DNA of 64,000 nt. Origin: Hydrogenophaga sp. (lineage in GTDB: Bacteria > Pseudomonadota > Gammaproteobacteria > Burkholderiales > Burkholderiaceae_C). A program made the translations under genes and the position numbers. This document shows positions 7,305-28,566 of this stretch, one piece after another; position 1 is the stretch's first letter, and the number at the start of each line of letters is the position of its first letter. The stretch is from NCBI GenBank assembly GCA_030682835.1, contig JAUXNG010000091.1, forward strand, positions 45,275 to 109,274, read 5' to 3'. Below the pieces are notes generated by a model. The model searched no databases. It worked only from the letters and a program-made list of their open reading frames with translations, and had not been told where the DNA came from.

Positions 7305-7309
7305 CGGGC

Positions 7310-7846: not shown

Positions 7847-7882
7847 GACGCACTCCGGTGAATCGGGCGGGATTGCCCGAGA

Positions 7883-8777: not shown

Positions 8778-10248
8778 GGGCTTTGAGCACCACCCCTTTC
8801 AAGGTGTTGCCCGCCCAGCCTTGATAACCCGAGCGGTCGCCACATGCGAACTAGCGAGGGCGCCGTCCACGAACCCCTTGGGAACCTTTGGGTTGGGTGC
8901 ACACTTGCTGGTTGTCAACTGTCTGGGCTTGAGGCGAGTGGCCAGCCGCAACAATCGCTCCATGAGCTGGCTCAGCTGCAGGGCGCCCACTTGCGGCAGA
9001 TGCTCGGGCGGCAATGCAAAAGCCATCGCCTCATAACCACTGTTGATCTCCACCGTCAGGTGAAAGGTGGATACGTCGAATTCTGGATGCATGGCCTCGT
9101 GTGCCTGCGCGATCACGCGCTTGAGCAGGGCCAGCACGTTGTAGGCGAGCACCCCTGCGGCAAAGCCCAGCAGCGCCGCACGCGGATGACCCAGACTCTT
9201 GATCTCGCTGTGCAGCACCGACTCTAGCCGCCGGAACATACCTTCGATACGCCAGCGCTGGCGATACCGGCGCGCAATGGTGGCGGCCTCGATCTCCCGG
9301 GGGAGATTGCTCCACAGGATGACGTGCGTGTCTCCCGCCTCTGTGGACGATGACAGTTCAATCTCGATGCGCCGCCAGGGCTGCTGCTCAGCTGGCTCTT
9401 GAGCTGAATGCCTTGCTCACGCACGCGACCGGTCTGGGTGTCGGTGCATGCACCCCATGGACCGCGCTCGCTCACACGGGGATGGCGCGCATGCTCGCGC
9501 ACGATGAAGCAGGCCTGGCGCTGGCTCAGGCCGCACAGCAGCGCTTCGGAGCAGAAGTGCCGGTCTGCGATCCACACCTGCTGCGCCTGGACCGACGCCG
9601 TGAGGCTGGCCGCGCCCACGCGCTCGCTCTGATGCGTATCCTCACATGCCACGATGTCGCATACCAATGCACTGTCGGGGTCGTAGACCACCAGGGTGTG
9701 GCCCGGGCGTGCGGCGCCGCGAAAGCCGCGCAGCATGGCCAGCCGCTTGTCGCTGGCGGGCAAGTGGTTGCCGTCCAGAACGCGCAATTGCCAGCCGGGC
9801 AAGCTGGCCTGCCCGGGCAGGCACTCAGTCAAGGGAGCCAGCCGCTGCGCGCTGCCCTGCACCAGCGCGCGCAGCACGGCGGGCTCGCAGCGATTGACCT
9901 TGTCGTACAGCGCCGCCAGTGACACGGGCAGCCGTTCATCGAGCTTGAGCGCTGCCGCGTGCAGCGAGGGCCGAAGGCCCAGGGACACCAGCGTCCATCA
10001 GCTCCACCACCGTGGAGAACAACAGCTCGCGCGGGTACTGGCGCTGGCGGTGCGTCTCGAACACTTCATCGATCCAGTGCGCTGGCAGGGCCTGCTCCAG
10101 GGCCAGGCGCGCCATCACGCTGGCCGGTGCTTGCTGTTCGAACCGCTCCACCACTACTTGCCAGACCATCTTTGTTCCTGATTCCAGAGAAATCAGAAGA
10201 CTACGACGGTTGCTTCTCCAACACCTTGAAGGGGGTGCCTTTAAGAGC
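8778..10248 (-). mobile_element. IS4-family insertion sequence, about 1.47 kb
   Basis: The ends are imperfect inverted repeats that share CTTT(G/A)AG-, GCACC and CAAGGTGTTG blocks (left from 8778, right up to 10248). GATCA flanks both sides (8773-8777 and 10249-10253) as a likely target duplication, although IS4 elements often give longer ones. It carries one transposase gene that is now frameshifted. On its right side the duplicated target supplies the stop codon of the neighbouring cytochrome b gene. Confidence 0.7.
8799..10169 (-). pseudogene. IS4-family transposase, two frameshifts
   Basis: The protein can be reassembled from three frames. The N-terminal part begins MVWQVVVERFEQQAP at 10169. 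The middle part carries VLDGNHLP and WIADRHFCSEALL, the first two catalytic Asp regions. The C-terminal part has YRQRWRIEGMFRRLE, the Y-R-E signature. Frame changes are needed near 9985 (at VELM/SLGLRPSLHAA) and near 9395 (before EIELSSSTEAG). The DDE residues survive, but the enzyme should be inactive unless frameshifting occurs. The IS is therefore probably immobile in cis. Confidence 0.85.
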
Positions 10249-10250
10249 GA

Positions 10251-11045
10251 TCAATCACCGTCCCTTTCGTGCTGTCGCACATGTGCCCGGGAAAGATTCG
10301 GGCTTGGCTCTGCCAGCGGGTCGGCAATGCCACGAGAAAGCCTGCTTGATGGGTGCGCATCAAGCCACTGCCACGCCCCAAAGCCCAGCACCCCCAGCAG
10401 CAGCAAAGCGGCCAGCCAGCGGCGGTTGTGCTGCACCGGGCTGGGGCCTTGGCCGGGCACCCGTCCGGTCAGCATGGGTTGGGCCATGTTCTGGCGGCGC
10501 ATGACACTGAATGTGACCATCATCGCCAGGTGTGCCAGCACCACCAGCAGGAAGACGTTACTGAAGAATTCGTGAAGCTCTTCGAGCCAGTCCTCGCCCA
10601 ACGCGGTGCCCCAGTCGTTGAAGGTACCGTATCCCGTGAGCGTGACCGGCAGCACCAGTGCCAGCATCAACAGCACCGCCAGCGCCACGGCCATGTTCTG
10701 GCCCTGGCGCCAGTTGACGGCACGCAAATCGCCAGCTGTCCACGCTGCTTTCAGGGATTTCAGCCATGCAGGTGCCACCCCGAGCTTGCGCCACAGCAAG
10801 GATAAGCCCATTTGCCGCGGCCCCCAGAGCCCATAGCCCACACGGAAGGCGAGCAAGCCCGCCAGCGTATAGCCCAGCGTGACGTGCAGCAGCCGCCAGT
10901 GCTCGCTTTCCGCGGTGAGGTAGGCGCCAGCAAAACTGAGGGCAAACAACCAGTGGAACATGCGCGTGGGCGCATCGGTGACACGCCTGCTGGGCGCTCT
11001 GGTGGCATCCGGTGGGCTGGACGGTGGGGCGTATGAGGGGGTCAT
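10251..11045 (-). CDS. Cytochrome b561-type membrane protein
   Basis: 264 residues with four or five membrane segments: MFHWLFALSFAGAY, TLGYTLAGLLAFRVGYGLW, MAVALAVLLMLALVLPVTL and NVFLLVVLAHLAMMVTF. Histidines in FHW, LLHV, ELHEFF and LAHL are suitable b-heme ligands. A last hydrophobic segment (LAALLLLGVLGFGAW) follows. It is the third gene of an SHP-DHC-cytochrome b operon and would link the quinone pool to the periplasmic c-type partners. ATG at 11045 is preferred over an upstream start. The last codons and stop lie in the IS target duplication, so the original end of the gene appears preserved. Confidence 0.85.
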   Translation of the reverse strand: MTPSYAPPSSPPDATRAPSRRVTDAPTRMFHWLFALSFAGAYLTAESEHWRLLHVTLGYTLAGLLAFRVGYGLWGPRQMGLSLLWRKLGVAPAWLKSLKAAWTAGDLRAVNWRQGQNMAVALAVLLMLALVLPVTLTGYGTFNDWGTALGEDWLEELHEFFSNVFLLVVLAHLAMMVTFSVMRRQNMAQPMLTGRVPGQGPSPVQHNRRWLAALLLLGVLGFGAWQWLDAHPSSRLSRGIADPLAEPSPNLSRAHVRQHERDGD

Positions 11046-11068
11046 GGCGGGGCACCTTCGGTGGGGCA

Positions 11069-11626
11069 TCAGTCTTGCCAGGCACGGCGTTGGCGGGGCG
11101 AGAGGCCAGCGGGCATCTGCAGGCGGTTGTCGTCGTAGAGGCCTTGCTCGGTACCGGTGTGGCATGCAGCGCAGTTGGCCGCGGTTTTCACGCTCGGCAG
11201 CAACCAGACGCCGAGTTCTATGTGGCGGTGCTTGCGCACGAACCACGCGGAGCGGGTGATGCGGTCTTCAGAGGGTTCTTTGGCCACGCGCTTGTACGTG
11301 CCAGCGTGGGCCTGCAGCCACCCGGCGAGTTGCTGCACGGTGGCCGGGTCCAGCGACGCATCGGTACCGAAATGCTGATCCAGCCCGCCCATGAGGCGCT
11401 GCCACGAGCGGGCTGGCAGCATGCCCGGCGGGTAGGCGGTATGGCAGGCCGCACATTCCTGCACGTAGACAGGCAGCACCACCTGCGGCATGAGGCGGCC
11501 ACTTTCTGCATGTGCGGTTCCCAGGACGAAGCCCACACAAAGGGCCACGCCAAGCCGCCCAGCCAGGACCTTGAACCGTTGGGTTGCCTGCCGGGACCCC
11601 GGAGGGCGCGAACGAATGACGCTCAT
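11069..11626 (-). CDS. Diheme cytochrome c (DHC)
   Basis: 185 residues with a signal peptide (GVALCVGFVLGTAHA, cleavage near residue 38). Two CxxCH heme sites follow: CAACH in YVQECAACHTAYPPG and CAACHTG near residue 155. Both length and partners match DHC, the periplasmic electron donor to SHP. The start overlaps the SHP stop as ATGA, so the two are translated together. Expected location is the periplasm, receiving electrons from the membrane cytochrome b encoded downstream. The exact electron sink in this host is unknown. Confidence 0.88.
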   Translation of the reverse strand: MSVIRSRPPGSRQATQRFKVLAGRLGVALCVGFVLGTAHAESGRLMPQVVLPVYVQECAACHTAYPPGMLPARSWQRLMGGLDQHFGTDASLDPATVQQLAGWLQAHAGTYKRVAKEPSEDRITRSAWFVRKHRHIELGVWLLPSVKTAANCAACHTGTEQGLYDDNRLQMPAGLSPRQRRAWQD

Positions 11627-12030
11627 TTCAGCTCCAGGAGGAAGGCCAGCACATCGGCTTTTTCGATGGCGGTGCATTCGCGCGCCAGCACGTCCTTGCA
11701 GTTGCGGCGAAACCATTTGTCTGCCTTGGCTGCATCGGTCAGGCTTCGGGCGTTGAAGGCGGGCGCCAGCGCAGCGATGGCTTTGCTGGTGTTTGCATGC
11801 TGGCCCTGTGCGGTGGGCAGAGCACCGTGGCACGAGGCACACGACCATTCACCACCATGGCGGGACTGGAAAAAAACCTGCCCCCGCGCGGCAACACCTG
11901 GGGCACCGGCCTCGGCATTCCAGCGTTGCAGTTGTGCGGCGGGGGTCGTGTCGCCCGCGTGGGCAGTGGCGGCCAGCCCCAGCAGCACGGCGGCCGTCAG
12001 TCCGTGGAGAGAGGGAAAATGGAAGTTCAT
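11623..12030 (-). CDS. SHP-type monoheme cytochrome c
   Basis: 135 residues with a clear signal peptide ending ATAHA. One heme site, CASCHG, is followed by the family-typical GQHANTSKAI (a candidate Asn sixth ligand) and WFRRNCKDVLARECT-like spacing. The pattern is that of the sphaeroides heme protein, an oxygen- and NO-binding cytochrome of uncertain purpose. It is the first gene of the operon with DHC and cytochrome b and is divergent from a PepSY/two-component operon, 146 bp apart. ATG at 12030 has a GGAG site. Confidence 0.88.
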   Translation of the reverse strand: MNFHFPSLHGLTAAVLLGLAATAHAGDTTPAAQLQRWNAEAGAPGVAARGQVFFQSRHGGEWSCASCHGALPTAQGQHANTSKAIAALAPAFNARSLTDAAKADKWFRRNCKDVLARECTAIEKADVLAFLLELK

Positions 12031-12134
12031 GGCACAGCTCCAGTCAGGGAGAAAAGAATTGGGAAATGGGCGGGCCGATGCAAGGGCCATGGACGCAGTG
12101 TGCAAACCGGTACTTGAACGAGACCTGAAGCCGT

Positions 12135-12152
12135 TGTTCAGCCACCGTTCAG
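12135..12152 (+). promoter_or_regulatory. PhoP-type direct-repeat box
   Basis: TGTTCA-N5-CGTTCA (11-bp period) resembles a PhoP box. The -10-like GACAAT follows 11 bp later (12164-12169), which predicts a start of transcription about 12176, at the very start of the PepSY gene. The box lies in the divergent region between shp and the PepSY-PhoPQ-like operon, so it could serve autoregulation and, on the other side, the cytochrome operon. Confidence 0.55.
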
Positions 12153-12176
12153 AATCGCTTGAGGACAATGTGGACC

Positions 12177-12533
12177 ATGAACACCTTCAGCCGTTTTCCC
12201 CTGGCCCTGCTGTGCGCCGCACTGGTGGTCGTTTCCCTCTCGCTGGTACGGCCCGAGGCCGCCAGCGCGGGCAGCGACGAGCGAGATCACGACCGTGCGC
12301 GCAACGCCCTGCAGGCCGGCGAGGTCCTGCCACTGAAGTCACTGCTGACGCAGCTGGAACGCACACATCCGGGCCAGGTGCTGGAGGTGGAACTGGAGCA
12401 TGAGCACGGACTGTGGGTATACGAGTTCAAGCTGCTCCAGCCCGATGGTCGCCTGGTCAGGCTGGAGCTGGATGCCCGCACGGGCACGCTGCTCCAGCAG
12501 CGCGTGCGTGAGCGCAAGCGCGACAGCCAGTGA
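12177..12533 (+). CDS. Periplasmic PepSY-domain protein
   Basis: 118 residues: a signal peptide (LALLCAALVVVSLSLV) and one PepSY-like unit with VLPLKSLLTQLERTHPGQVL then VYEFKLLQPDGRLVRLELD. Such small PepSY proteins are commonly encoded beside PhoPQ/QseBC-type two-component systems and are suspected to modulate the sensor or a periplasmic protease. It begins the operon, 6 bp before the response regulator. The ATG at 12177 was chosen over 12168, which lies too close to the only GAGGA. The transcript may be nearly leaderless. Confidence 0.75.
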   Translation: MNTFSRFPLALLCAALVVVSLSLVRPEAASAGSDERDHDRARNALQAGEVLPLKSLLTQLERTHPGQVLEVELEHEHGLWVYEFKLLQPDGRLVRLELDARTGTLLQQRVRERKRDSQ

Positions 12534-12539
12534 GCGGCC

Positions 12540-13199
12540 ATGCGCATCTTGCTGGTGGAAGACGACGCCGTGCTGCGCGGTCAGCTGCGCACGGCGCTGG
12601 AGGAGGCAGGCCACATCGCCGAGGTGGCCGACAACGGCCGCGATGCCCTGTTCAGGGGGGAAACCGAAAGTTTCGACGCTGTGGTGCTAGACTTGGGGTT
12701 GCCGCAGCTGGACGGCATCACCGTGCTGCAGCGCTGGCGTGCGGCCGGGCGCGCCATGCCTGTGCTCATCCTCACGGCACGCGACAACTGGAGCGAGAAG
12801 GTGGCGGGCATAGACGCCGGAGCGGACGACTACCTGACCAAGCCGTTCCACCTGGAGGAGTTGTTGGCACGCCTGCGTGCCCTGATGCGCAGGGCCGCCG
12901 GCCAGGCATCGGCGGTCTTGCGGTGCGGCACGGTGCGCCTGGACACCCGAAGTGGGCGTGTCACGGTGGACGGCCAGCCGGTGGCCCTGACCAGCCATGA
13001 GCACCGGGTGCTGGAGTACTTGATGCACCGGCCCGGCGCCGTGGTCTCGCGCAGCGAACTGACCGAGCATATCTATGCTCAGGACCACGACCGCGACTCC
13101 AACACCATTGAAGTTTTTGTGGGCCGCCTGCGCAAGAAACTGCCTGAAGGCATCATTGAAACCGTACGCGGCCTGGGTTACCGCCTGGTGGTGCCGTGA
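12540..13199 (+). CDS. OmpR/PhoP-type response regulator
   Basis: 219 residues. The receiver has VEDDA (acidic pocket), the phospho-acceptor Asp51 in VVLDLGLPQLDG, and the Lys of YLTKPF. The winged-helix effector ends with NTIEVFVGRLRKKL and GLGYRLVVP. The sequence is closest in character to PhoP/QseB regulators. Its stop overlaps the kinase start as GTGA. It probably acts on the PhoP-type box at 12135. The signal (Mg2+, cationic peptides, metals) cannot be read from sequence. Confidence 0.88.
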   Translation: MRILLVEDDAVLRGQLRTALEEAGHIAEVADNGRDALFRGETESFDAVVLDLGLPQLDGITVLQRWRAAGRAMPVLILTARDNWSEKVAGIDAGADDYLTKPFHLEELLARLRALMRRAAGQASAVLRCGTVRLDTRSGRVTVDGQPVALTSHEHRVLEYLMHRPGAVVSRSELTEHIYAQDHDRDSNTIEVFVGRLRKKLPEGIIETVRGLGYRLVVP

Positions 13200-14626
13200 C
13201 GGCACCCTGGTGGCCCCGAATCGGCACGGGCTCCCTGCGTTTGCGGCTGCTGGGCGCCACGCTGGTGACGCTGGCGCTGGCGCTGACCGGCGCGCACTGG
13301 TGGCTCAGCAGCCTGTTCAGGGACCATGTGTGGCGCCAGTTCGATGTGGCGCTGGTGCAGCAGCTGGACCAGCTGACGGCGCGCCTGTCGTTTGACAGCG
13401 AAGGCTTGCCCAGCATCGACCCAGGCAGCCTGTCGGACCCGCGCTGGGACAGACCCTACTCGGGTCTCTACTGGCAACTCGACCGCGTGGGGGCGCCAAC
13501 ACCGACCGGTGCGCCAGCCCCAGGACGCACGGGCGTGCTGCGCTCCCGTTCGTTGTGGGACAGCCAGCTCCATCTGCCGCTGGACGCGCTGGCCCCCGGG
13601 AGCCTGCACACCCACGAGGCGGCGGGCCCAGGCGGTGAGGCGGTGCGCGTGGTGGAGCGGACCGTGGCCGCGGGTACACACGCGCGTGAAATCGACGCCT
13701 GGCGCCTGATAGTGGCAGCCGATACGCAGGAGACGCAGCAGGCGATGGGGCGGTTCAGTGGCTTGCTGGCGGCGTCTTTGGCGGGGCTGGGCGCCTTGCT
13801 CGCACTAGCGGCGCTGGCGCAGGTGTCGGTGGGCCTGGCGCCATTGCGCCGCATGCGCGAGGCCTTGCAGCGCCTGCGCGACGGGCATGCCCGCCGGCTT
13901 GAAGGGGATTTTCCGATGGAGTTGCAGCCGCTTATTCACGACTTCAACAGCGTGCTGGAACGCAATGCCGAGGTGGTGGAACGCGCCCGCACACAGGCGG
14001 GCAACTTGGCCCACGCACTCAAGACGCCACTGGCCGCTCTGCGCAACGCGGCGCGGCAGTCTGCGCCCTCTGAACTGGGCACCCTGGTGAGCGAACAGGT
14101 CGAGCAAGCTCAGCGGCACATACAGTGGCACCTCGCCCGCGCCCGGGCGGCCGCCACGCAGCACCTGCCCGGCCAGCGCACGCCGCTGGCGCCCGCGCTG
14201 GCGGGGCTGGTGCGCGTCATGGACAAGGTGCATGCCGAGCGCGCCATTGCGGTGAACGCCAACGCCGTGGCACCCGAGCTGGCCTTTGCCGGCGAAGCCC
14301 AGGACCTGCAGGACATGCTAGGCAATCTGCTGGACAACGCCTGCCGCAGCGCCCGCCGGCAGGTAGAGGTGACGGCACAGCGCGATGGCCCGCAACTGTG
14401 CATTGCTGTGGACGACGACGGCCCGGGCATTGACCCCGAATTGCGCCCTGCCGTGCTGCGGCGTGGGGTGCGGCTGGACGAAATGGTGCCCGGCAGCGGG
14501 CTGGGGCTTTCCATCGTGGTGGAACTGGCCAGCCTCTACGGTGGCGAGCTGGCGCTGCAAGACAGCCCCCTTGGTGGTCTGCGGGCCCTGCTCATACTGC
14601 CTCATTCACCTGAAACCAGACCCTGA
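13196..14626 (+). CDS. PhoQ-type sensor histidine kinase
   Basis: 476 residues from a GTG overlapping the regulator's stop. It has a membrane helix at about 18-38, a periplasmic domain of about 145 residues and a second helix at 188-212 leading into HAMP. The dimerization box is NLAHALKTPLAAL with the phosphorylated H273. The ATPase domain has an N box (NLLDNACRSA), a G1 box (DDDGPGI) and a G2 box (GSGLGLSIV). The HALKTPLA form of the H box is typical of the PhoQ group. The sensor domain shows no clear acidic patch by eye, so the ligand is left open. Confidence 0.88.
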   Translation: MTAPWWPRIGTGSLRLRLLGATLVTLALALTGAHWWLSSLFRDHVWRQFDVALVQQLDQLTARLSFDSEGLPSIDPGSLSDPRWDRPYSGLYWQLDRVGAPTPTGAPAPGRTGVLRSRSLWDSQLHLPLDALAPGSLHTHEAAGPGGEAVRVVERTVAAGTHAREIDAWRLIVAADTQETQQAMGRFSGLLAASLAGLGALLALAALAQVSVGLAPLRRMREALQRLRDGHARRLEGDFPMELQPLIHDFNSVLERNAEVVERARTQAGNLAHALKTPLAALRNAARQSAPSELGTLVSEQVEQAQRHIQWHLARARAAATQHLPGQRTPLAPALAGLVRVMDKVHAERAIAVNANAVAPELAFAGEAQDLQDMLGNLLDNACRSARRQVEVTAQRDGPQLCIAVDDDGPGIDPELRPAVLRRGVRLDEMVPGSGLGLSIVVELASLYGGELALQDSPLGGLRALLILPHSPETRP

Positions 14627-14720: not shown

Positions 14721-15404
14721 ATGCGCCTGATCATTCTGGAAGACGACCCCCAACTCGGCGAGGCCCTGGCCATCGGCTTGCGCCAGCAGGGCCATGTGGT
14801 GGACTGGTTCCAGGACGGCGAGCCGGCCGGCCACGCGCTGGGGTCGGCCGCCTACGACGCGCTCATCCTCGACCTGGGCCTGCCGCGCACCGACGGCGTT
14901 ACCTGGTTGCGCCAATGGCGTGCCGCTGGCCTGACCCTGCCGGTGCTGATCCTGACCGCGCGCGATGGCGTGGAGCACCGCATCGGTGGGCTGGATGCCG
15001 GTGCCGACGACTACCTCATAAAGCCCATCGACATACACGAACTGGCGGCGCGCCTGCGCGCGCTGCTGCGGCGCGCCACCGGGCGTGTGCAGACCGTGTG
15101 GACGCACGGTGCGTTGCAGTTCGACCCGGCCAACCGCACGGTGCGTTGGAATGGGCGGGCAGTGGAACTGACGCCGCGCGAAACCGCCCTGCTGGAGGTG
15201 CTGCTCAAGCAACCGCAGAAGGTGCTCTCCAAGAGCCGCTTGCAGGAGCAGTTGTACGACTGGAGCGGTGAGGAGCCCGACAGCAATGTGCTGGAGGTGC
15301 ACATCCACCACCTGCGCCGCAAGATCCATCCGGGTATCGTGCGCACGGTACGCGGCGTGGGCTATGCCCTGGGCGCGCCCCAGGAAACACCGGCTGCGGC
15401 ATGA
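14721..15404 (+). CDS. PmrA/QseB-type response regulator
   Basis: 227 residues. The receiver domain has LEDDPQLGEAL, the phospho-Asp in LILDLGLPRTDG and the Lys of YLIKPID. The winged helix ends VLEVHIHHLRRKIHPG then VRGVGYALG, typical of the PmrA/QseB branch. The true start is ATG at 14721 (MRLIILEDD); the longer frame upstream is antisense-like noise. It is paired with the kinase 10 bp downstream. Boxes of the PmrA type before this gene, the HiPIP gene and eptA make control of lipid A modification the best guess. Confidence 0.85.
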   Translation: MRLIILEDDPQLGEALAIGLRQQGHVVDWFQDGEPAGHALGSAAYDALILDLGLPRTDGVTWLRQWRAAGLTLPVLILTARDGVEHRIGGLDAGADDYLIKPIDIHELAARLRALLRRATGRVQTVWTHGALQFDPANRTVRWNGRAVELTPRETALLEVLLKQPQKVLSKSRLQEQLYDWSGEEPDSNVLEVHIHHLRRKIHPGIVRTVRGVGYALGAPQETPAAA

Positions 15405-15414
15405 CCAGCTGCGC

Positions 15415-16824
15415 ATGTCCACCGCCCCCCTGACCCTGCAGCGCCGGCTGCTGCTCTATCTGCTGATCACGGCGCCGCTGGTGTGGTCGGTGGCACTGGG
15501 TTTTTCCATGGTCAAGGCGCGCCACGAAGTCAATGAGCTGTTCGACACCGAGATGATCCGGCTGGCCCGCCAGATCCAGGTGATTTCGCCCAGTCTGTCC
15601 CCCGACCGCACCGGCCCCCAGTGGCTGGCCGAGCCGCCACCCACACAGGGTGAGGCCGACCTGAACGATCTGGCGGTGGCGGTTTGGAACCAGGACGGCG
15701 AGATGCTGGTGGTGGACCGCGAAGGGGTGGCCTTGCCGTGGCACCCCGACGCCACCGGGTTCATGGACGTGTCGGTGGGCGCCGAGGCCTGGCGTGTCTA
15801 CTACCTGCCGGCCCCCGGACTGAAGGGCCTGATCGCGGCCGGTCAGCGCATGGACGAACGCGACGAGCTGGTGTGGGGCCTGGTGAGCAGTCAGATGGTG
15901 CCCTGGCTGCTGGTGCTGCCCGTGCTGCTGGCGGCCATGGCGTGGGCTGTGCGCCGGGCCCTGGAACCCATGAAGGCGGTGACGGAGTCGCTTCACGCCC
16001 GCAGTGCCGACGATCTGCACCCCCTGCCGCTGGACCTCGCACCGCAGGAACTGCACCCGCTGCTGGAGGCCATGAACAGCCTGTTCCAGCGCATAGCAAC
16101 CACGCTGGAACATGAACGGCGCTTCACCGCCGACGCGGCGCACGAACTGCGCACGCCCATGGCCGTGCTGTCGGCGCAGTGGACCGTTTTTCAGGGTGCC
16201 CGCGACGACGCCGAGCGGCAACGTGCCGCCGAGAAACTGACGCAGGGCCTGGCGCGCGCCAGCCGCCTCATGGAGCAGCTGCTCAGCCTGTCGCGACTGG
16301 AAGCCACGCAGGGGCTGACACAACCGCAGCCGCTGCGCTGGCACGAATTGGTGGAGCAGGTGCTCTCGGATGTGCTGCCACTGGCTGAGCGGCGCCAGAT
16401 CGAGTTGGCGTGCGAGTGGAACGAGCCGGGCGAAACCGGCGAGTCGGATGGTCCTGCCTGGCTGGGCGACAACACGCTCATGGCACTGCTGCTGCGCAAC
16501 CTGCTGGACAACGCGGTGCGCTACGCACCCGCAGGCTCCACGGTGGCGCTCAGGCTCACGGCCCATTCCGTGGCGGTGGACAACGCCACCCAGTCGGCTG
16601 TGACCCAACGCATGGCCCCGGCCGACCTCGCGCAGTGGGGCAAGCGCTTCCACCGCCCCGACGGTCAGCAGGAAAGCGGCAGCGGGCTGGGCGTGTCCAT
16701 TGCGCGGCGCATTGCGCTGCTACACGGTCTCACGCTCCATTACCGCATGGGTGCTAATGGCCATGTGGTGGCCGAACTCGCCCGGTCTGCAGTGCCTGCC
16801 GCGCCGCCCGTTGCCGAACCTTAA
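15415..16824 (+). CDS. PmrB/QseC-type sensor histidine kinase
   Basis: 469 residues. Membrane helices lie at about 12-32 and 161-180, with a periplasmic domain of about 130 residues between them. The H box is ERRFTADAAHELRTPMAVL with H243, and the N box is LLRNLLDNAVRYAP. The G2 box is GSGLGVSIA. The G1 box (normally DxGPG) is replaced by VAVDNATQSAVT, which keeps the Asp but lacks the glycines. Variation at G1 is known within QseC-like kinases, so activity is not excluded. The stop codon lies inside a PmrA-type box serving the next gene. Confidence 0.82.
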   Translation: MSTAPLTLQRRLLLYLLITAPLVWSVALGFSMVKARHEVNELFDTEMIRLARQIQVISPSLSPDRTGPQWLAEPPPTQGEADLNDLAVAVWNQDGEMLVVDREGVALPWHPDATGFMDVSVGAEAWRVYYLPAPGLKGLIAAGQRMDERDELVWGLVSSQMVPWLLVLPVLLAAMAWAVRRALEPMKAVTESLHARSADDLHPLPLDLAPQELHPLLEAMNSLFQRIATTLEHERRFTADAAHELRTPMAVLSAQWTVFQGARDDAERQRAAEKLTQGLARASRLMEQLLSLSRLEATQGLTQPQPLRWHELVEQVLSDVLPLAERRQIELACEWNEPGETGESDGPAWLGDNTLMALLLRNLLDNAVRYAPAGSTVALRLTAHSVAVDNATQSAVTQRMAPADLAQWGKRFHRPDGQQESGSGLGVSIARRIALLHGLTLHYRMGANGHVVAELARSAVPAAPPVAEP

Positions 16825-16836
16825 GCGGGCATTAAG
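16820..16836 (+). promoter_or_regulatory. PmrA-type box before the HiPIP-dgkA pair
   Basis: CTTAAG-CGGGC-ATTAAG, an almost ideal PmrA box with 11-bp period, overlaps the TAA of the sensor kinase gene. After exactly 10 bp comes TACAAC (16847-16852), a good -10 hexamer. The HiPIP start codon is about 95 bp further on. Confidence 0.75.
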
Positions 16837-16947
16837 GCACGCCGTCTACAACCGACCCCGTCGTCCCGGAAAGCGGCAGTCCCCACGATGGGGCCTGACG
16901 CCCTGGCGAGGACCGCCAGGCTTTTCTGGCACCCCACAGAGCACATC

Positions 16948-17265
16948 ATGCATAGAACGATGGAAATGGACAGACGGATTTTTGTCATGAAACTGGTGTC
17001 GGCCGCGACGATGCTCGGCGCCTCTTCGCTGGCCTTGGCCGAGGCCAAACCCATGGTCGCCGAAGCCGATCCACAAGCCGTGAACCTGAACTACAAGACC
17101 GATGCGGCTGCTGTGAAGCACGCGAAGTTCAAAAGCGGTCAAGTCTGCGGCAACTGCGCGCTGTTCCAGGGCAAGGCCACGGACGCCGCCGGCGGCTGCG
17201 GCATCTTCCCCGGCAAGCAGGTGGCGGCCAAAGGCTGGTGCGCGGCGTACGCCAAGAAGGCGTGA
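16948..17265 (+). CDS. High-potential iron-sulfur protein (HiPIP)
   Basis: 105 residues. A Tat-like leader (MDRRIFVMKLVSAATMLG) precedes the mature protein. The four cluster cysteines have HiPIP spacing: CGNCALFQG, GGCGIFPGKQV and GWCAAY. HiPIPs are periplasmic one-electron carriers that need folding with the cluster before Tat export. ATG at 16948 is chosen; the ATG at 16960 is possible. Its stop overlaps the dgkA start as GTGA, so a redox carrier and a lipid kinase are translationally coupled under a PmrA-type promoter. The electron partners are not identified; the SHP/DHC system nearby is a candidate. Confidence 0.88.
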   Translation: MHRTMEMDRRIFVMKLVSAATMLGASSLALAEAKPMVAEADPQAVNLNYKTDAAAVKHAKFKSGQVCGNCALFQGKATDAAGGCGIFPGKQVAAKGWCAAYAKKA

Positions 17266-17696
17266 CCTCGCCCGTGCGCAGCGAAGGCCCGGCGTGGCCG
17301 AGGCCCGGACCCGCCGTGCCGGCAGCCGTTCCTGCCAAACGCAAAGGGCTCGGCCGCGTCTGGCATGCACTTCGGTATTCGCTGAAGGGCCTGCGCGCGG
17401 GCTGGCACGAGCCCGCGTTCCGTCAGGAGGCCTTGCTCGGTCTGGTGATGCTGCCCAGCGCCTGGCTGTTGGGCAACACCTGGCTGGAGGTGGCGGTGCT
17501 GTGCGGCGCCGTGGTGCTGGTGTGGATCGTCGAGCTGCTCAACACCGCCATTGAGTCGGTGGTGGACCGGATCGGGCCGCAATGGCACGAACTGTCTGGT
17601 CGAGCCAAGGACATGGGCAGCGCGGCTGTGCTGCTCAGCCTGCTGCTGTGTGCGCTTGTCTGGGGCAGCGCCCTTTTCAACTGGCTCCGGGGTTAG
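17262..17696 (+). CDS. dgkA: Diacylglycerol kinase, DgkA type
   Basis: 144 residues. The family signature is NTAIESVVDRIG with the upstream E in IVELLN and downstream GRAKDMGSAAV. Three membrane helices are visible (about 62-78, 80-100 and 118-138). The first 35 residues are an extension rich in Pro, Ala and Arg. The enzyme phosphorylates diacylglycerol to phosphatidic acid in the inner membrane. Phosphoethanolamine transfer from PE to lipid A releases diacylglycerol, so DgkA would recycle the EptA by-product. GTG at 17262 overlaps the HiPIP stop. Its 3' end overlaps the convergent eptA by 20 bp. Confidence 0.9.
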   Translation: MTSPVRSEGPAWPRPGPAVPAAVPAKRKGLGRVWHALRYSLKGLRAGWHEPAFRQEALLGLVMLPSAWLLGNTWLEVAVLCGAVVLVWIVELLNTAIESVVDRIGPQWHELSGRAKDMGSAAVLLSLLLCALVWGSALFNWLRG

Positions 17697-19362
17697 CGCC
17701 GCGAAAGCCCAGCAACTCGCCACGGCACGGGGCTGCCACATCCAGCGCAGCCAGATAGGTGCGGGTTTGGACCGCCGCCAGGCCCAGCACGCTGTGGAAC
17801 AGGTGGTCGTGCGACACCGGCTGGCTGGCCTGCTGGCGCAGGCAAGGCAGGTCCAGACGGTGATGCGCCCGGTAGGCGGGGCTCCACCACATCAGCATGG
17901 GCACGTGGGTCTGCTCTTTCGGGGCCATGCCGTAGGGCATGCCGTGCAGGTACAGACCCTTCTCTCCCAGTGACTCACCATGGTCGGACACGTAGTACAG
18001 CACCGCGGGCTGTGGCTGCCGCTCCAGCCACGCGACCGCCTCGGCCAGCACATGGTCGGTGTAGCGGATGGTGTTGTCGTAGGCGTTGACAATTTCCTCA
18101 GGCCGGCAGGCGGTCAAGGCGGTGTTCTGGCACTCCGGGCCAAAGACCTTGAACCCGGGCGGCGTGCGACGGTAGTAGGCCGGGCCATGGCTGCCCATCT
18201 GGTGCAGCACCACCACCGTGCCGCGCGCGCGCCGCGCCGGATCCAGCAGGGCCAGGCCTGCCGGCAATGCCTCCAGCAAAGCGCCGTCGGGGCACTCCCC
18301 GTCCGGACAGCGCTCGGGCCCCAGCAGCTTGGCCGCGCTGCTGTGCGTCACCCGTTCGCATACACCCTTGCAGCCCGACTGGTTGTCCAGCCAGAGCACC
18401 GCCAAGCCGGCCCGCTGCAGCACATCGAGCAGGTTTTCCTGGCGCAGGTCGGGGTCGTATTGCAGCCTCGTCTGGGCTGAGAACATGCAGGGCACCGAGG
18501 TCTGGGTGTTGGTGCCACAGGAACTGGCCTGGTCGAAATAGACCATGTCTCCCCGTTTCATCAACTGCTGCAGCCTGGGCGTGGTGTCCCTCGCGTAGCC
18601 CCCCAGGCCAACGTTGGCGGCTCTGGCCGTCTCGCCCACCACGATGAGCACCAGCGGGGCTTCACCGCCCGATGCGGCACCCGCCTGCAACACAGCATCT
18701 TCGGCCAGCCGACGCAAGGGCTGCTGGGCATGGCTGGCGCGCCCCAGGTTGTGGCGGGTGGCGGCGTACACGGTGTTGAAGGGATTGATCATGTAGCGCA
18801 AAGACTTGTGGTTGCGCATGAGCGAGGCCATGTCCTGATAGCCCAGCCACAAGACCCCCACAGCCAGCACCAGACACCCGAACACCGTGGCCACCTGCTG
18901 CACCACCAGCCTGCCGCGTGGCACCGGGCGCACCGCCCGGCGCCACCACCACCAGCCGGGCAGGGCGAAGCCCATCAGAAGCACCCACCCCAGCGGCCCT
19001 GACAGCAGATCTCGTGCTTCCCTGACGTCGGTGTTGACCACATTGGCCCACATGGTCGGGTCTATCACCACGCTGTAGCTGTACATGAAGTGGCTGCTCA
19101 ATGCGCCGGTGAGCAGCAGCAACAAGCCGGCAGGCTTGCGCCAGCGGGGCCAGATCCAGAAGCCGGTAAAGGCCAGAATGGCGCTCCACAGAAACAGCCC
19201 CCAGCCGAAGAACATGACCCACTGCGTGGGTTGCTGAAGAGCCGAAACCTGCGCCAGCTTCAGCCACAACGGGACGTTGCCCAACGTGGCCAGCCACAGA
19301 GCCAGCAGGCTCAGCAAAACGGTGGGGTGCCAGCCGGCGGGCTGGTGGGATTCAAGCTGCAT
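17677..19362 (-). CDS. eptA: Lipid A phosphoethanolamine transferase, EptA/MCR-like
   Basis: 561 residues. Five N-terminal membrane helices reach to about residue 180, followed by a periplasmic alkaline-phosphatase-fold domain. All key residues of the EptA/MCR family can be seen: Glu in VVGETARAANVG (about 244), the nucleophile Thr in SCGTNTQTSVPCMF (about 284), His in HQMGSHGPAY (about 392), Asp-His in YVSDHGESLG (about 460) and His in YLHGMP (about 473). Paired cysteines fit the usual disulfides. It moves phosphoethanolamine from PE to lipid A phosphates, lowering polymyxin binding. ATG at 19362 is preferred over the GTG at 19368. A PmrA-type box and CATACT lie upstream. Confidence 0.93.
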   Translation of the reverse strand: MQLESHQPAGWHPTVLLSLLALWLATLGNVPLWLKLAQVSALQQPTQWVMFFGWGLFLWSAILAFTGFWIWPRWRKPAGLLLLLTGALSSHFMYSYSVVIDPTMWANVVNTDVREARDLLSGPLGWVLLMGFALPGWWWWRRAVRPVPRGRLVVQQVATVFGCLVLAVGVLWLGYQDMASLMRNHKSLRYMINPFNTVYAATRHNLGRASHAQQPLRRLAEDAVLQAGAASGGEAPLVLIVVGETARAANVGLGGYARDTTPRLQQLMKRGDMVYFDQASSCGTNTQTSVPCMFSAQTRLQYDPDLRQENLLDVLQRAGLAVLWLDNQSGCKGVCERVTHSSAAKLLGPERCPDGECPDGALLEALPAGLALLDPARRARGTVVVLHQMGSHGPAYYRRTPPGFKVFGPECQNTALTACRPEEIVNAYDNTIRYTDHVLAEAVAWLERQPQPAVLYYVSDHGESLGEKGLYLHGMPYGMAPKEQTHVPMLMWWSPAYRAHHRLDLPCLRQQASQPVSHDHLFHSVLGLAAVQTRTYLAALDVAAPCRGELLGFRGANPGAS

Positions 19363-19411
19363 GCGCACGCACCTATCGGGATGACGGAGCGGCGCAGTAT
19401 GGAAAGCGCGG

Positions 19412-19428
19412 GTTAATCCCAGCTTAAG
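19412..19428. promoter_or_regulatory. PmrA-type box between eptA and PAP2
   Basis: GTTAAT-CCCAG-CTTAAG, 11-bp period. Toward eptA (- strand) a 10-bp gap leads to CATACT at 19396-19401, a fair -10. Toward the PAP2 gene a 10-bp gap leads to TCAACT at 19439-19444, a weaker one. The box sits in the 107-bp divergent gap and could control both directions. Confidence 0.7.
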
Positions 19429-19469
19429 GCTGAAGCGGTCAACTGGTGGTTTTTCAACTCCCTGCGCGC

Positions 19470-20195
19470 ATGCGATTGAGAACTTCTTTACTGACAGGGG
19501 TGGTGCTGTGGGTGCTCGCCCTGGCCTGGGACCTGACCGGTTGGGACTGGGCGGTGATGCGAGCCCTGGGCACGGAGACCGGCTTTGCGCTGCGCCACGA
19601 CTTCTGGCTGGAGGTGGTGCTGCACGACGGCGCCAGACGGGCCGCGCAGCTGGCGCTGGCGGTGGTGGCCGTCTTCACCGTGAAACCCCTGACGCAACGC
19701 CACCTCCCCAGCCTGGCCCTGCCCTGGCAGGCGCTGGCCGGGGTGCTGGCTTGCCTGGTGGTGGCCGGACTGGTCAAGCGCTACAGCGCCACCAGTTGCC
19801 CCTGGGAGTTGGACGCGTTCGGCGGTGTGGCGCGGTATGTGTCGCACTGGACCTGGGGTCTTGATGACGGGGGGTCGGGGCGCTGTTTTCCGGGTGGGCA
19901 CGCCTCGGCGGCGTTCGCGTTCTGGCCGGTGGCGCTGGCCTGGATGCACAGCCCATCGGACCGCATGCGGCGTCTTGGGCGCTGGCTGTGGTGGCTGGTG
20001 CTGGCCGCCGGGCTGGTGTTGGGTGGCGTGCAGACGCTGCGGGGGGCGCATTACCCGAGCCACACGCTCTGGACCGCCGTTCTCTGCTGGACCTTGACGG
20101 TGCTGATGGCGGTGCTGGAGAGGGCCAGATCCACCTGGGCCACGCGTCAAGACGCCGTGCTGAACAGCCGTTGCTCACCCCTTCCCCACCCTTGA
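19470..20195 (+). CDS. PAP2-family membrane phosphatase
   Basis: 241 residues, about six membrane helices. The three PAP2 phosphatase motifs are present: K103 in VKRYSATSCPW, PGGHAS at 141-146 and RGAHYPSH at 191-198. Members dephosphorylate lipid phosphates such as undecaprenyl pyrophosphate, PGP or lipid A 1-phosphate; the sequence does not tell which. A pap2 gene beside a phosphoethanolamine transferase is also known from the mcr-1 locus. ATG at 19470 is chosen; the ribosome site is weak. It is divergent from eptA and followed 94 bp later by the LtaS-like gene. Confidence 0.85.
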   Translation: MRLRTSLLTGVVLWVLALAWDLTGWDWAVMRALGTETGFALRHDFWLEVVLHDGARRAAQLALAVVAVFTVKPLTQRHLPSLALPWQALAGVLACLVVAGLVKRYSATSCPWELDAFGGVARYVSHWTWGLDDGGSGRCFPGGHASAAFAFWPVALAWMHSPSDRMRRLGRWLWWLVLAAGLVLGGVQTLRGAHYPSHTLWTAVLCWTLTVLMAVLERARSTWATRQDAVLNSRCSPLPHP

Positions 20196-20289
20196 GGTCG
20201 CGCCTCCGCCACCCGCCTCGAACAACAGCCGGGGTCATCTCGCCTTGCGGCCCAGCTTCCTGCCCCTGTGGCAGCTATTCAACGCTTTC

Positions 20290-22266
20290 ATGACATTGCA
20301 TTTCCCCCCACCTGCCTCCACCGAACGTCACGCCCTGGGATGGATGGGTACAGCACCTGCCCTGGCACGGCTCATGGGGCCGCCGCTGCTGGCCATGTGG
20401 GCGGTGCTGCTGGTCGGCCGCGCCGGACTCGCGCTGTGGTTGCACGAGCGCATGGGCGCGCAAGCGGCCTGGGGTGCGCTGGGGCTCGAAAGCCTCCGGT
20501 TCGATGGCGTCTTGCTGGGCTTGATCTGGTGCGCACCCGCGGCACTGCTGCCCTGGCTGCTCACCTTCCGCGGGGGTATTCAATGGGCAACCAAGGCCAC
20601 GCGGCTGTATGCCCTGCTGTGGTTCCTGTTCGTGTTCTTCATGGAATGCGCCACGCCCGCCTTCGTCATGGAGTACGACAGCCGCCCCAATTACCTGTTC
20701 GTGGAGTACCTGCGGCATGTGCGGGAAGTGGCCCCCACCGTGGTGCTGCAGTACCCCTGGGCCACGGGCCTGGCGGCCATCGCCCTGCCCCTGGGCGGCT
20801 GGGCCTTCTGGCGCTGGGCCAGGCCCATCCCGCCCCGTGCCCGCATCACCTGGCCAGCTGCGCTGGGTTGGTCGGTGCTTCTGTTCGGCCTCTTCGTGCT
20901 GATGGCCCGGGGCGCCTTGGGACACCGCCCCGCCAACCCGGCCCTGGCCGCCATCACCCAGGACAACCTGGTCAACCAGTGGCCACTGGCGTCGGGCTAC
21001 ACGCTGCTGTACGCGCTGCGCCAGTCTGCGCGCAACGAAACCGGCGGGGTGGTCTACGGGCACATGCCCCAAGACGAGATGCTGGCCGTTGTCCGGGATG
21101 AGATGGGCCTGCCCGCGACAGCCTTCAACGCCCCGGATGCGCCCACTCGCCACCTGCAGGCCCGAGGCCCTGCGCGGGCGAAGCCGCACAACCTGGTGAT
21201 CATTCTCGAAGAGAGCATGGGCGCCGAGTTTGTCGGGCGCCTGGGTGGCCTGGGTGTCACGCCCCACCTGGACCGCCTCGCCGCTGAAGGCATCTGGTTC
21301 GACCAGCTCTATGCCACCGGGACGCGCTCGGTCAGGGGCATCGAGGCCGTGGTGGCGGGATTCCCCCCCACATCGTCCGAAAGCACCGTCAAGCTGCAGC
21401 GCGCGCAGAAGGACTTCTTCACACTCGGCCAGTTTCTGAAAGCACAGGGCTACCGCTCCACCTTCTTGTACGGCGGGGAGTCCCACTTCGACAACATGCG
21501 GGGCTTCTTCATGGGCAACGGTTTCGATGACGTGATCGACGAGCAAGACTTCCCCGAAGACAGTTTCCGCGCCACCTGGGGGGTGGACGATGTGGGCCTG
21601 CTGGACAAGGCAGACCCCTACTTTGCCGCCCAGACGCAACCGTTCTTCGGCCTCGTGTTCACATCGTCCAACCATGCGCCCTTCGAGTTCCCCGACGGCG
21701 CCATCGAGCTGCACGAAAGCCCCAAGCCAACCGTCAACAACGCGGTGAAGTATGCCGATCACGCGCTCGGCCGGTTCTTTGAGAAGGCCCGGCGCTCAGC
21801 TTATTGGGACAACACCGTGTTCCTGGTGGTGGCAGACCACAATTCCCGTGTATACGGCGACACACTGCTTCCCATCCAGCGCTTTCACATTCCCGGACTG
21901 ATACTGGGTGGGCCCGTAAAGCCCGACGTGATCACCACCCAGGCCAGCCAGATCGATCTGGCGCCCACACTCATCAGCCTGCTGGGCCTGCACGGAGAGC
22001 ACCCGATGATTGGCCGGGATCTGACCGATCCGGCGCAGCGCCAGCGCCCCGGCCGCGCCATCCTGCAGTTCGACAAGACGCAGGCCTACATGGAAGGCGA
22101 CAGGGTGGTCCTGTTGCGACCCGAACTGCCACCCGCCGCCATGCGGTACGACAGCCCGTTAGGCCAGCTGATGCCCAGCACCGAACCCATGCCAGACCTG
22201 GTCCGGAAAGCCGTGGCGCACGCGCTGTTTGCGCCGCAGGCCTACCGGGAGGGCTGGCATCGGTGA
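20290..22266 (+). CDS. LtaS-like phosphoglycerol transferase (sulfatase fold)
   Basis: 658 residues: an N-terminal membrane part with about five helices to residue 230, then an alkaline-phosphatase-superfamily domain. Metal and nucleophile motifs of LtaS/OpgB proteins can be seen: LVIILEESMG (Glu), ATGTRSVRGIEAV (Thr nucleophile), WGVDDVG, SSNHAPFEFP and VVADHNSR (Asp-His). Gram-negative members transfer phosphoglycerol or phosphoethanolamine to periplasmic glycans or the envelope; the substrate here is unknown. ATG at 20290 is preferred, though no strong ribosome site is seen. It probably belongs to the same transcription unit as PAP2. Confidence 0.85.
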   Translation: MTLHFPPPASTERHALGWMGTAPALARLMGPPLLAMWAVLLVGRAGLALWLHERMGAQAAWGALGLESLRFDGVLLGLIWCAPAALLPWLLTFRGGIQWATKATRLYALLWFLFVFFMECATPAFVMEYDSRPNYLFVEYLRHVREVAPTVVLQYPWATGLAAIALPLGGWAFWRWARPIPPRARITWPAALGWSVLLFGLFVLMARGALGHRPANPALAAITQDNLVNQWPLASGYTLLYALRQSARNETGGVVYGHMPQDEMLAVVRDEMGLPATAFNAPDAPTRHLQARGPARAKPHNLVIILEESMGAEFVGRLGGLGVTPHLDRLAAEGIWFDQLYATGTRSVRGIEAVVAGFPPTSSESTVKLQRAQKDFFTLGQFLKAQGYRSTFLYGGESHFDNMRGFFMGNGFDDVIDEQDFPEDSFRATWGVDDVGLLDKADPYFAAQTQPFFGLVFTSSNHAPFEFPDGAIELHESPKPTVNNAVKYADHALGRFFEKARRSAYWDNTVFLVVADHNSRVYGDTLLPIQRFHIPGLILGGPVKPDVITTQASQIDLAPTLISLLGLHGEHPMIGRDLTDPAQRQRPGRAILQFDKTQAYMEGDRVVLLRPELPPAAMRYDSPLGQLMPSTEPMPDLVRKAVAHALFAPQAYREGWHR

Positions 22267-22269: not shown

Positions 22270-22518
22270 GTGCCCGTCGCGGAACGGGCACCCGCACGGC
22301 CTTCCTGAGCGGGACCAGATGACACTTTGCCTGCGGTGAAGGCAGCTTCTGCACGAGGGCCTTGATCTCTTCGCGCCGGCCGGCATCGGCGATCGGCCGG
22401 CTCGGGTGCCCCGGGACCCAGAGGGCACGCTGCGCGCAAGGAAGCGCTTCGCTGGCACGGCCGTTCTCGGCCAGAAGCTCGGCGTAAAAGACCCTGGGGT
22501 CTATGCCTTGGGGGTTGT
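22270..22518 (-). pseudogene. C-terminal remnant of a TPR-like protein
   Basis: On the - strand, FYAELLAENGRASEALPCAQ followed by REEIKALVQKLP resembles the last TPR-like helices of a larger bacterial protein. The frame is open from the truncated radC directly into this fragment and on into antisense DNA, with no natural start of its own. It appears to be a deletion junction: the 3' part of one gene joined to the 5' part of radC. The parent gene is not recognised. Confidence 0.4.
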
Positions 22519-22747
22519 CATGCGGCAGATGGCCCAGCCGGGTGCGCAGGAAATCCTTGACCACCGCCGGCGAATCCATGACGTCGCTGCCGCGCACTTG
22601 AGAAGCCAGCAATTGCTGCGCCGCCAGCAGCACCTCGTCAGCCGCCGCCGGGCGGTACTGCCCGTGCGTGTCGCGCACCAGCAGCGGCCCGACCGCAGCC
22701 GAGAAAGCCTGAAAGGATTCGAGCGAAGAAAACAGATCGTGTGGCAT
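22519..22747 (-). pseudogene. Truncated radC copy
   Basis: Starting at ATG 22747 (MPHDLFSSLES), about 75 codons are nearly the same as in radC at 7310-7846. The match stops after RLGHLPH; the JAB domain with HNHPSG is missing. The frame then runs into unrelated sequence. Together with leader copy 2 it shows that a piece of the element's leading region was duplicated at this spot. Confidence 0.85.
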
Positions 22748-22793
22748 GACGCACTCCGGTGAATCGGGCGGGATTGCCCGGGACCGGAAAACG

Positions 22794-23069
22794 GCACGCG
22801 GCAGCGCAGCGGTCACAGGTTCGAAGACGGCCGCACGGCCGCCAGCACACGCAATGGGCGCAGACCTTGAGCGCGAGAACGGTGTGAAAGGATGATGGGA
22901 ACAGCAAGCCAGCCCTACCACCACGGCACGAGAGCAGAGAAGGCAAGCGCAGCGCGCAGGCCGGGGACCCCGGGGCAGCCGGAGGCGTCAGGGATCGAAG
23001 CCGCATGGCCGTGACCCGGTACGGGGCACGGGGCGCAGCCCGCAGAGCCCGACGGGGGCAAGCCGGGAC
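22794..23069 (-). repeat. Leader repeat, copy 2 of 3
   Basis: Same orientation as copy 1 at 7883. It is nearly identical, with scattered substitutions and a short insertion (ACGGGGC, near 23030). It remains attached to the truncated radC. Its right edge, after GCCGGGACG, is followed by the intergenic DNA of the mocR-lrgAB-ccoG block. Confidence 0.85.
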
Positions 23070-28202: not shown

Positions 28203-28483
28203 CCGGAAAACGGCACGCCGCAGCGCAGCGGTCACAGGTTCGAAGACGGCCGCACGGCCGCCAGCCCACGCAGTGGGCTCAGACCTTGAGCGCGAGAACG
28301 GTGTGACAGGATGAAGGGAACAGCAAGCCAGCCGCACCACAACAGCACGAGTGCAGAGAAACGCAAGCGCAGCGCGCAGGCCGGGGGCCCTGGGCGAGCG
28401 AAGGGGTCAGGGATCGAGCCACAGGGCCCGGGGCACAGGGTACGGGGCGCAGCCCGCAGGGCCCGACGGCGGTATGCCGGGCC
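28203..28483 (-). repeat. Leader repeat, copy 3 of 3
   Basis: Same orientation as copies 1 and 2. It starts abruptly at CCGGAAAACGG, just inside the radC-proximal part, and carries no radC codons. It is somewhat more diverged than copy 2 in the CAGGCCGGGGGCC segment and beyond. It separates the ccoG-regulator block from the DUF456/HigBA end of the element. Confidence 0.85.
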
Positions 28484-28566
28484 CATAGCAACACAACGAC
28501 TGGAAACTTCGGAAGCCACGTCACGTCTCAAAATCTTCAATTTCCTCATTTTTATGAAAGCACGCC

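What the first reader, a model, noticed from the sequence alone, without database searches (positions are those of the whole stretch)
14721..22266. Lipid A/envelope remodelling cassette on a mobilizable element
PmrAB-like regulators, an EptA/MCR-like phosphoethanolamine transferase with all catalytic residues, DgkA, PAP2 phosphatase and an LtaS-like transferase stand side by side. Together they could add phosphoethanolamine to lipid A, recycle the diacylglycerol formed, and change other phosphate groups in the envelope. A complete regulated set within tRNA-bounded element borders is a plausible environmental source of polymyxin resistance genes. Enzyme families are established knowledge; joint action and mobility are inference.
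Basis: partly seen in the sequence, partly recalled or inferred. Interest (0 to 1): 0.85.

Follow-up and report, generated by a model that had tools for sequence, protein, structure and literature searches.

The report
Foreign lipid-A locus on mobile island
A roughly 30-kilobase island beside a tRNA gene, in a bacterium that is likely a Hydrogenophaga, carries a foreign set of outer-membrane genes predicted to add phosphoethanolamine to lipid A, while this genome's own version of that set is missing from its usual place, so such polymyxin-tolerance genes are likely swapped as whole units between environmental bacteria.

Summary
EptA (17677-19368, minus) keeps the active-site residues. In a 106-row tree it groups with Serpentinimonas (support 100), apart from 33 of 36 same-genus copies (AU p = 0.00014) and from all six MCRs tested. 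The genes are cargo of an integrative element: integrase, relaxase and MobC-like genes follow tRNA-Arg; a tRNA-end copy lies at 30261-30283; GGGGGAACA, probably the integrase arm site, occurs six times in 64 kb, only near these two ends. A same-genus genome has the empty site. The block is a foreign version of a locus that 9 of 16 chosen same-genus loci carry whole; its usual site is empty here: native loss plus foreign gain. Corrections: regulators are QseBC-like and PhoPQ-like, not PmrAB; one intact tRNA; not an MCR; 'LtaS-like' is nearest the uncharacterised VP1736; PAP2 misses the lipid A phosphatase cut-off. Mobile eptA with dgkA or pap2 is known (mcr, Vibrio), so this is a variant of a known kind. 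Resistance, joint action and present mobility are untested. Repeated radC ends hint that the island grew by stacking.

The parts
78..154 (+). tRNA-Arg (TCT); its 3' end is the predicted left attachment site
   Evidence: identical in empty-site genome G015
291..434 (.). four GGGGGAACA words (291+, 330-, 387+, 426-), putative integrase arm sites
   Evidence: six in the window against 0.49 expected, no shuffle of 100 reached six
435..1688 (+). tyrosine integrase
   Evidence: Pfam Phage_integrase, Arm-DNA-bind_3, Phage_int_M
1760..3458 (-). MobA/VirD2-type relaxase and NikA-like MobC
   Evidence: Pfam
3647..8194 (.). rest of the element backbone: StbB-like ATPase (by eye), DUF932, SSB, RadC
   Evidence: Pfam for DUF932, SSB, RadC; same order in a second element of this genome
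8162..8163 (.). boundary J: DNA homology around radC ends here
   Evidence: 14 of the 20 best other same-genus radC places end at 8162-8168, 6 do not
8760..10250 (-). degenerate IS4-type transposase, in three ORF pieces
   Evidence: about 70% DNA match to an annotated IS4 family transposase; pieces
10254..12533 (.). cytochrome b561, DUF1924 protein (both minus), PepSY protein (plus)
   Evidence: Pfam
12540..14626 (+). PhoPQ-like response regulator and histidine kinase (pair 1)
14721..16824 (+). QseBC-like response regulator and histidine kinase (pair 2)
16888..17265 (+). high-potential iron-sulfur protein
   Evidence: Pfam HIPIP
17238..17696 (+). diacylglycerol kinase DgkA, convergent with eptA
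   Evidence: Pfam DAGK_prokar
17677..19368 (-). EptA phosphoethanolamine-lipid A transferase
   Evidence: Pfam, NCBIfam NF028537 above cut-off; residues
19446..20195 (+). PAP2-family phosphatase, divergent from eptA
   Evidence: Pfam PAP2
20245..22266 (+). VP1736-like sulfatase-fold membrane transferase ('LtaS-like')
22518..23069 (.). radC-end fragment 2, ends at J
   Evidence: 90% DNA identity to 7617-8162
28203..28484 (.). radC-end fragment 3, ends at J, followed by DUF456
   Evidence: 90% to 7883-8163
30189..30283 (+). right end: two GGGGGAACA words and a copy of the tRNA-Arg 3' end (30261-30283)

Best explanation
These genes are cargo of a 30-kb predicted mobilizable element (155-30283) inserted beside tRNA-Arg, and form a foreign eptA locus, likely taken from a Serpentinimonas-like relative, that stands in for a native locus missing from its usual site and would coat lipid A with phosphoethanolamine under likely two-component control. 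How it would work (steps 1-4 are inferred from the families, untested here): (1) the QseBC-like and perhaps the PhoPQ-like pair sense an envelope or metal signal and switch the genes on; (2) EptA moves phosphoethanolamine from phosphatidylethanolamine to lipid A phosphates, lowering negative charge and polymyxin binding; (3) DgkA phosphorylates the diacylglycerol left over; (4) PAP2 and the VP1736-like transferase adjust other phosphate groups in the envelope. Shown by sequence: families, residues, gene order, foreign tree position, element ends, empty site in a relative, empty native site. Inferred: donor, direction and mobility; no mating-pair genes were seen among 30 proteins scanned with Pfam, so transfer would need a helper.
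For: Families and residues. Element ends: integrase, relaxase, MobC beside tRNA-Arg, tRNA-end copy, GGGGGAACA only near both ends. Empty site: in G015 tRNA-Arg is followed by homologs of window 37.7-52 kb. Foreign: EptA 78% to Serpentinimonas against 42-55% to full-length same-genus copies; tree and AU test. Block collinear with Serpentinimonas Prado201 (two contigs) at 73-90% protein identity. Flanks native: left-flank GST 75-89% in 38 of 59 other same-genus genomes; HrpA (by eye) 92% to G015 and 75% to Serpentinimonas. Native site empty and no other close ortholog of regulator 1.
Against: The assembly is 87% complete and 4% contaminated. The attR-like copy alone is weak: BLAST E = 0.43, local score 32 against 30 for the next place. 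No excision or transfer evidence; a broken IS4-type gene lies in the cargo. The empty-site genome also lacks a further 7 kb to the right, so the gap there is not the element alone. dgkA is not at this place in the Serpentinimonas block. PepSY and DUF1924 lie within 3 kb of eptA in 0 of 80 named loci and cytochrome b561 in 2 of 80, so the cytochrome part may not serve lipid A. Donor direction is not resolved; one Serpentinimonas genome could be searched.
Confidence: 0.75

Rival explanations
1. An old chromosomal variant: the block is an ordinary accessory chromosomal locus that lies beside an element remnant and does not move with it. It would still modify lipid A.
For: Gene content overlaps the resident Hydrogenophaga locus; the IS4-type gene is degenerate; the right end is a short, imperfect copy.
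Against: The block lies between both predicted ends; tree and AU test reject grouping with the main same-genus branch; its usual chromosomal site is empty.
Confidence: 0.15
2. A mis-binned or chimeric contig: the eptA block comes from another organism in the same sample.
For: Draft assembly with 4% contamination; the block is nearest to another genus.
Against: Both flanks on the same 109-kb contig are genus-like; the element backbone has a second related copy in the same genome; the radC repeats differ by about 10%, so they are poor chimera points.
Confidence: 0.06
3. The block is mainly a redox or signalling unit (cytochrome b561, DUF1924 protein, HiPIP, two sensor pairs) and EptA, DgkA and PAP2 are a secondary output for housekeeping of phosphate groups rather than peptide defence.
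For: The cytochrome genes, PepSY and pair 1 precede eptA also in 9 of 16 chosen resident loci; a Vibrio eptA environment includes cytB and pepSY (PMC12064563 section 22).
Against: In 80 named eptA loci pap2 (38), dgkA (15) and two-component genes (37) lie within 3 kb, but PepSY and DUF1924 in none.
Confidence: 0.2

Closest known systems
Resident Hydrogenophaga eptA locus between pgk and azlCD-fmt (names by eye)
   Same: cytb561, DUF1924, PepSY, pair 1, convergent eptA, pap2 (9 of 16 chosen loci)
   Different: EptA mostly 48-55% identical; another second sensor pair in another position; chromosomal site; dgkA in only two of the 16 loci and the VP1736-like gene in one
Serpentinimonas Prado201 block (L041, L047, L168)
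   Same: collinear, 73-90% protein identity
   Different: no dgkA at that place; no element genes seen on its 16.7-kb contig
mcr-3-dgkA and mcr-1-pap2 cassettes
   Same: mobile EptA-type enzyme with DgkA or PAP2 neighbour (PMC7559476 abstract and section 2.1; PMC10285318 passages)
   Different: EptA here is 35-40% identical to the MCR places listed and outside the six MCRs in the tree; carries two sensor pairs; integrative element, not a plasmid
Vibrio dgkA-eptA with RstAB, and mobile Vibrio eptA copies in cytB-eptA-dgkA or PAP2-dgkA-eptA surroundings (PMC12064563 abstract, sections 22 and 25)
   Same: regulated eptA-dgkA sets; mobile copies near integrases or transposases; cytB and PepSY neighbours
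   Different: other lineage; here element ends and an empty site are seen and the resident site is empty
Comamonas endophytica plasmid NZ_CP106882 PAP2-eptA-dgkA-HK-RR
   Same: same five-gene theme outside the chromosome
   Different: EptA 45% identical; 647-kb plasmid typed as non-mobilizable; no cytochrome genes in the 11.5 kb seen
Tepidicella baoligensis locus L034
   Same: cytb561-DUF1924-PepSY-RR-HK, HiPIP, pap2, RR-HK, eptA, dgkA all within 20 kb
   Different: EptA 57%; different order; no integrase or relaxase match in the 21.6 kb held

Membership tests
EptA-type lipid A phosphoethanolamine transferase | passes NF028537 and has EptA_B_N plus Sulfatase domains | tested here: met
   526.5 bits against 500; Pfam
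EptA-type lipid A phosphoethanolamine transferase | catalytic Thr and zinc residues in aligned positions | tested here: met
   (roles recalled)
EptA-type lipid A phosphoethanolamine transferase | adds phosphoethanolamine to lipid A | not testable with these tools
   needs lipid A mass spectrometry
MCR | passes an MCR family model | tested here: not met
   12 MCR models hit at 259-359 bits against cut-offs of 1075-1250
MCR | falls with MCR proteins in a tree | tested here: not met
   MCR-1, -3, -4, -5, -8, -9 lie across a 99-support branch; MCR-2, -6, -7, -10 not included
PmrAB | passes PmrA and PmrB models | tested here: not met
   220.3 against 330 and 161.6 against 314; QseB and QseC score higher but also miss their cut-offs
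PAP2 lipid A phosphatase | passes NF028538 | tested here: not met
   56.4 bits against 275; PAP2 superfamily only
LTA synthase (LtaS) | passes the LtaS model | tested here: not met
   72.2 bits against 970; nearest solved protein is VP1736
Prokaryotic DgkA | Pfam DAGK_prokar above cut-off | tested here: met
   112 bits against 22.3
Integrative mobilizable element | integrase and relaxase next to a tRNA | tested here: met
Integrative mobilizable element | attachment-site repeat at both ends | tested here: inconclusive
   23 of 25 columns with a 2-base gap, BLAST E = 0.43; arm words at both ends
Integrative mobilizable element | empty site in relatives | tested here: met
   G015, L158; it also lacks the next 7 kb
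Integrative mobilizable element | excises and is mobilized | not testable with these tools
   needs attP PCR and mating in laboratory strains

The most novel reading that the evidence does not exclude
The backbone of this element family ends at one exact point (J) just upstream of radC, and this island grew by stacking cargo blocks there, each closed on its right by a truncated radC end: a module-capture route by which environmental bacteria swap whole regulated chromosomal loci, here a complete lipid A locus replacing a lost native one.
Probability: 0.25. Interest if true: 0.62.

Novelty: new variant of a known kind. Interest (0 to 1): 0.47.

Why it matters
Much of what is known of mobile polymyxin tolerance starts from plasmids already in clinical bacteria. 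Here an earlier step may be visible in an environmental genus: a whole regulated eptA locus with helper genes on an integrative element that has both predicted ends, an empty site in a relative, a likely source lineage and an empty native site. That makes 'eptA loci are exchanged as complete regulated units' testable. The repeated J boundary, if general, would explain how such elements pick up large chromosomal blocks.

Tried and rejected
A tRNA-end repeat at the 37.7-kb junction: ungapped scans and BLAST found none there, so the roughly 37.5-kb difference from the empty-site genome is read as the 30.1-kb element plus a neighbouring insertion with a putative Mrp-type antiporter (30.6-37.5 kb, named by eye). 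J as a hairpin: five J ends folded no better than shuffled sequence (z between -1.30 and 0.12). J as purely a cargo hot spot: in G012 (L215) and G076 (L209) a tRNA and chromosomal-looking genes (by eye) follow J within a few hundred bases, so J is better called the edge of the conserved backbone; 6 of 20 other radC loci do not end at J. Cassette DNA on plasmids: two hits covering about 1% or less. Print: (terms in those calls) listed no title that I recognised as describing this locus or element; these were listings of 20, 4, 1, 8 and 10 papers, of which I opened three, all. A first AU run did not finish; one search finished the test with 33 same-genus rows; the test with all 36 was not finished. 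A genus search around the Serpentinimonas genome reached one genome only, so whether the block is fixed there is open. Three of 12 search libraries' calls for structure prediction were not used, because solved relatives exist for EptA and the VP1736-like protein.
Full report
WHAT WAS CHECKED. EptA passes the NCBIfam lipid A phosphoethanolamine transferase model (526.5 bits, cut-off 500) and keeps E246, T288, H394, D462, H463 and H475 in alignment with Neisseria EptA and MCR-1 (roles recalled). The 'PmrAB' pair is closer to QseBC; neither set of models reaches its cut-off.

THE GENOME. The window is G000:C55:45275-109274 of a 104-contig assembly, 87% complete and 4% contaminated.

THE ELEMENT. 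A tyrosine integrase, a relaxase and a NikA-like MobC, then DUF932, SSB and RadC, follow tRNA-Arg. The predicted right end is a copy of the tRNA 3' end at 30261-30283. Alone it is weak: BLAST E = 0.43, and in a local-score scan it is best with 32 while the next place, on the other strand, has 30. What makes it convincing is GGGGGAACA, probably the integrase arm site: it occurs six times in 64 kb on both strands, at 291, 330, 387, 426, 30189 and 30201; 0.49 are expected and none of 100 shuffles reached six. In same-genus genome G015 the order GST, tRNA-Pro, tRNA-Arg is followed by homologs of window 37.7-52 kb, ten genes in the same order at 47-92% identity, five of them at 88% or more (L158). 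That genome lacks the element and also the next 7 kb. Of the other 15 regions fetched downstream of the same GST, two were cut within about 1 kb and none of the rest was collinear with the window's right flank, so the empty site rests on one genome.

FOREIGN ORIGIN. EptA is 78% identical to a Serpentinimonas genome and to protein P0002, and 75% to P0003. Of 59 other same-genus genomes 50 have a match (51 of 60 with this one); full-length copies are 42-55% identical, one 360-residue piece 61%. The tree has 106 rows: the window, 12 of 120 listed proteins and 93 of 95 loci given (L022 and L047 were too short). Of the 80 named loci only 45 were given. The window EptA joins Serpentinimonas, P0002 and P0003 with support 100. 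Of 36 same-genus rows, 33 form one branch (99); three (G063, G065, G072) lie elsewhere in the larger group that also holds the window; second copies from G012 and G017, not counted among the 36, lie in the other half of the tree. The six MCRs and E. coli EptA lie across a 99-support branch. It is a quick tree with SH-aLRT support only. An AU test rejects the window together with the 33 (p = 0.000142). The flanks look native: the left-flank GST is 75-89% identical in 38 of 59 other same-genus genomes, and HrpA (named by eye) is 92% to G015 but 75% to Serpentinimonas.

NATIVE LOCUS LOST, FOREIGN LOCUS GAINED. Of 16 same-genus loci that I chose and fetched, 9 show cytb561-DUF1924-PepSY-RR-HK, convergent eptA, another HK-RR and pap2; one is cut by a contig end; three keep eptA-HK-RR-pap2 without the cytochrome part; three keep eptA and pap2 only. 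In L245 the locus sits between genes that I read by eye as pgk and azlCD-fmt-def. In the present genome the pgk piece at the edge of contig C60 is followed at once by homologs of the azlCD, fmt and def genes, with no match to the locus between them. The next best match to response regulator 1 in this genome is 50% identical, while resident copies are 77-81%. G015 has no eptA at 99% completeness, and G060 none at 79%. So the island block is a xenologous version of a locus that this genome appears to have lost; 13% of the genome is unseen.

THE BLOCK ELSEWHERE. Its order is collinear with Serpentinimonas Prado201, split over two contigs, at 73-90% protein identity; dgkA is not at that place there. 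DNA identity over the long pieces is 75-82%.

DO THE GENES BELONG TOGETHER? In 80 named eptA loci, pap2 lies within 3 kb in 38, dgkA in 15, a match to any of the four two-component proteins in 37, the VP1736-like gene in 4; mocR, ccoG, lrgB, DUF456, mobA and mrpD of the window in none, the integrase in one. Twenty of the 80 are cut by contig ends, and regulator matches have a background because OmpR-type regulators are common. Against a wider unit: PepSY and DUF1924 lie that close in none of the 80, cytochrome b561 and HiPIP in 2 each. Lysobacter-type loci L051 and L067 hold pap2, eptA and a VP1736-like gene side by side. A Comamonas plasmid carries PAP2-eptA-dgkA-HK-RR. In print: dgkA was required for colistin resistance by a Vibrio eptA in laboratory E. 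coli (PMC12064563 section 25); genes linked to mcr-1 and mcr-3 were not essential but slightly raised resistance (PMC7559476 abstract, outline and section 2.1); mcr genes sit beside pap2 or dgkA while canonical eptA sit beside regulators (PMC10285318 passages). This block has both features.

HOW THE ISLAND WAS BUILT. Fragments of the radC end recur at 22518-23069 and 28203-28484; the three copies end within a base of each other at J. A compact relative in the same genome, beside tmRNA on C70, has mobA-mobC-...-DUF932-ssb-radC-J-DUF456-int, with the junction intact. Of the 20 best other radC places in the genus, homology ends at J (8162-8168) in 14 and elsewhere in 6. G060 has a radC fragment, J and DUF456 with other, catabolic-looking genes (by eye) to the left; G048 has a second radC end 3 kb beyond the first. 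The simplest reading is stacking of related elements, or homologous insertion at radC-J, followed by deletion. In G012 and G076 chromosomal-looking genes follow J closely, so J is at least the edge of the backbone. This is the most novel and least certain part.

VERDICT. A real, foreign, element-borne eptA locus with ordinary enzymes: a new variant of a known kind. Polymyxin resistance, joint action and present mobility are not shown.

Noticed in passing
23160-28184: MocR-type regulator, LrgAB and putative CcoG and FNR-type genes (last two by eye) form a second cargo module; CcoG at 79-81% in only 3 of 59 other same-genus genomes (G041, G067, G076), with relaxase matches nearby in G067 and G076.
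   Followed up: partly
29113-29774: Gp49/HigB-like protein with a small ORF beside it, near the right end; looks like a toxin-antitoxin pair (Gp49; partner by eye).
   Followed up: no
30601-37537: Putative Mrp-type antiporter operon (by eye) between the element's right end and the flank; also absent from G015.
   Followed up: partly
L167 4435-12872 (G000:C70): Second, compact element of the same family in this genome, integrated beside the tmRNA gene with a different integrase (47%).
   Followed up: partly
53656-53931: Short GC-rich tandem-like direct repeats (60 nt, 98%, spacing 81).
   Followed up: no
G012:C65, G017:C133: Second, more distant eptA copies in these same-genus genomes (42-48%), lying in the other half of the tree.
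   Followed up: no
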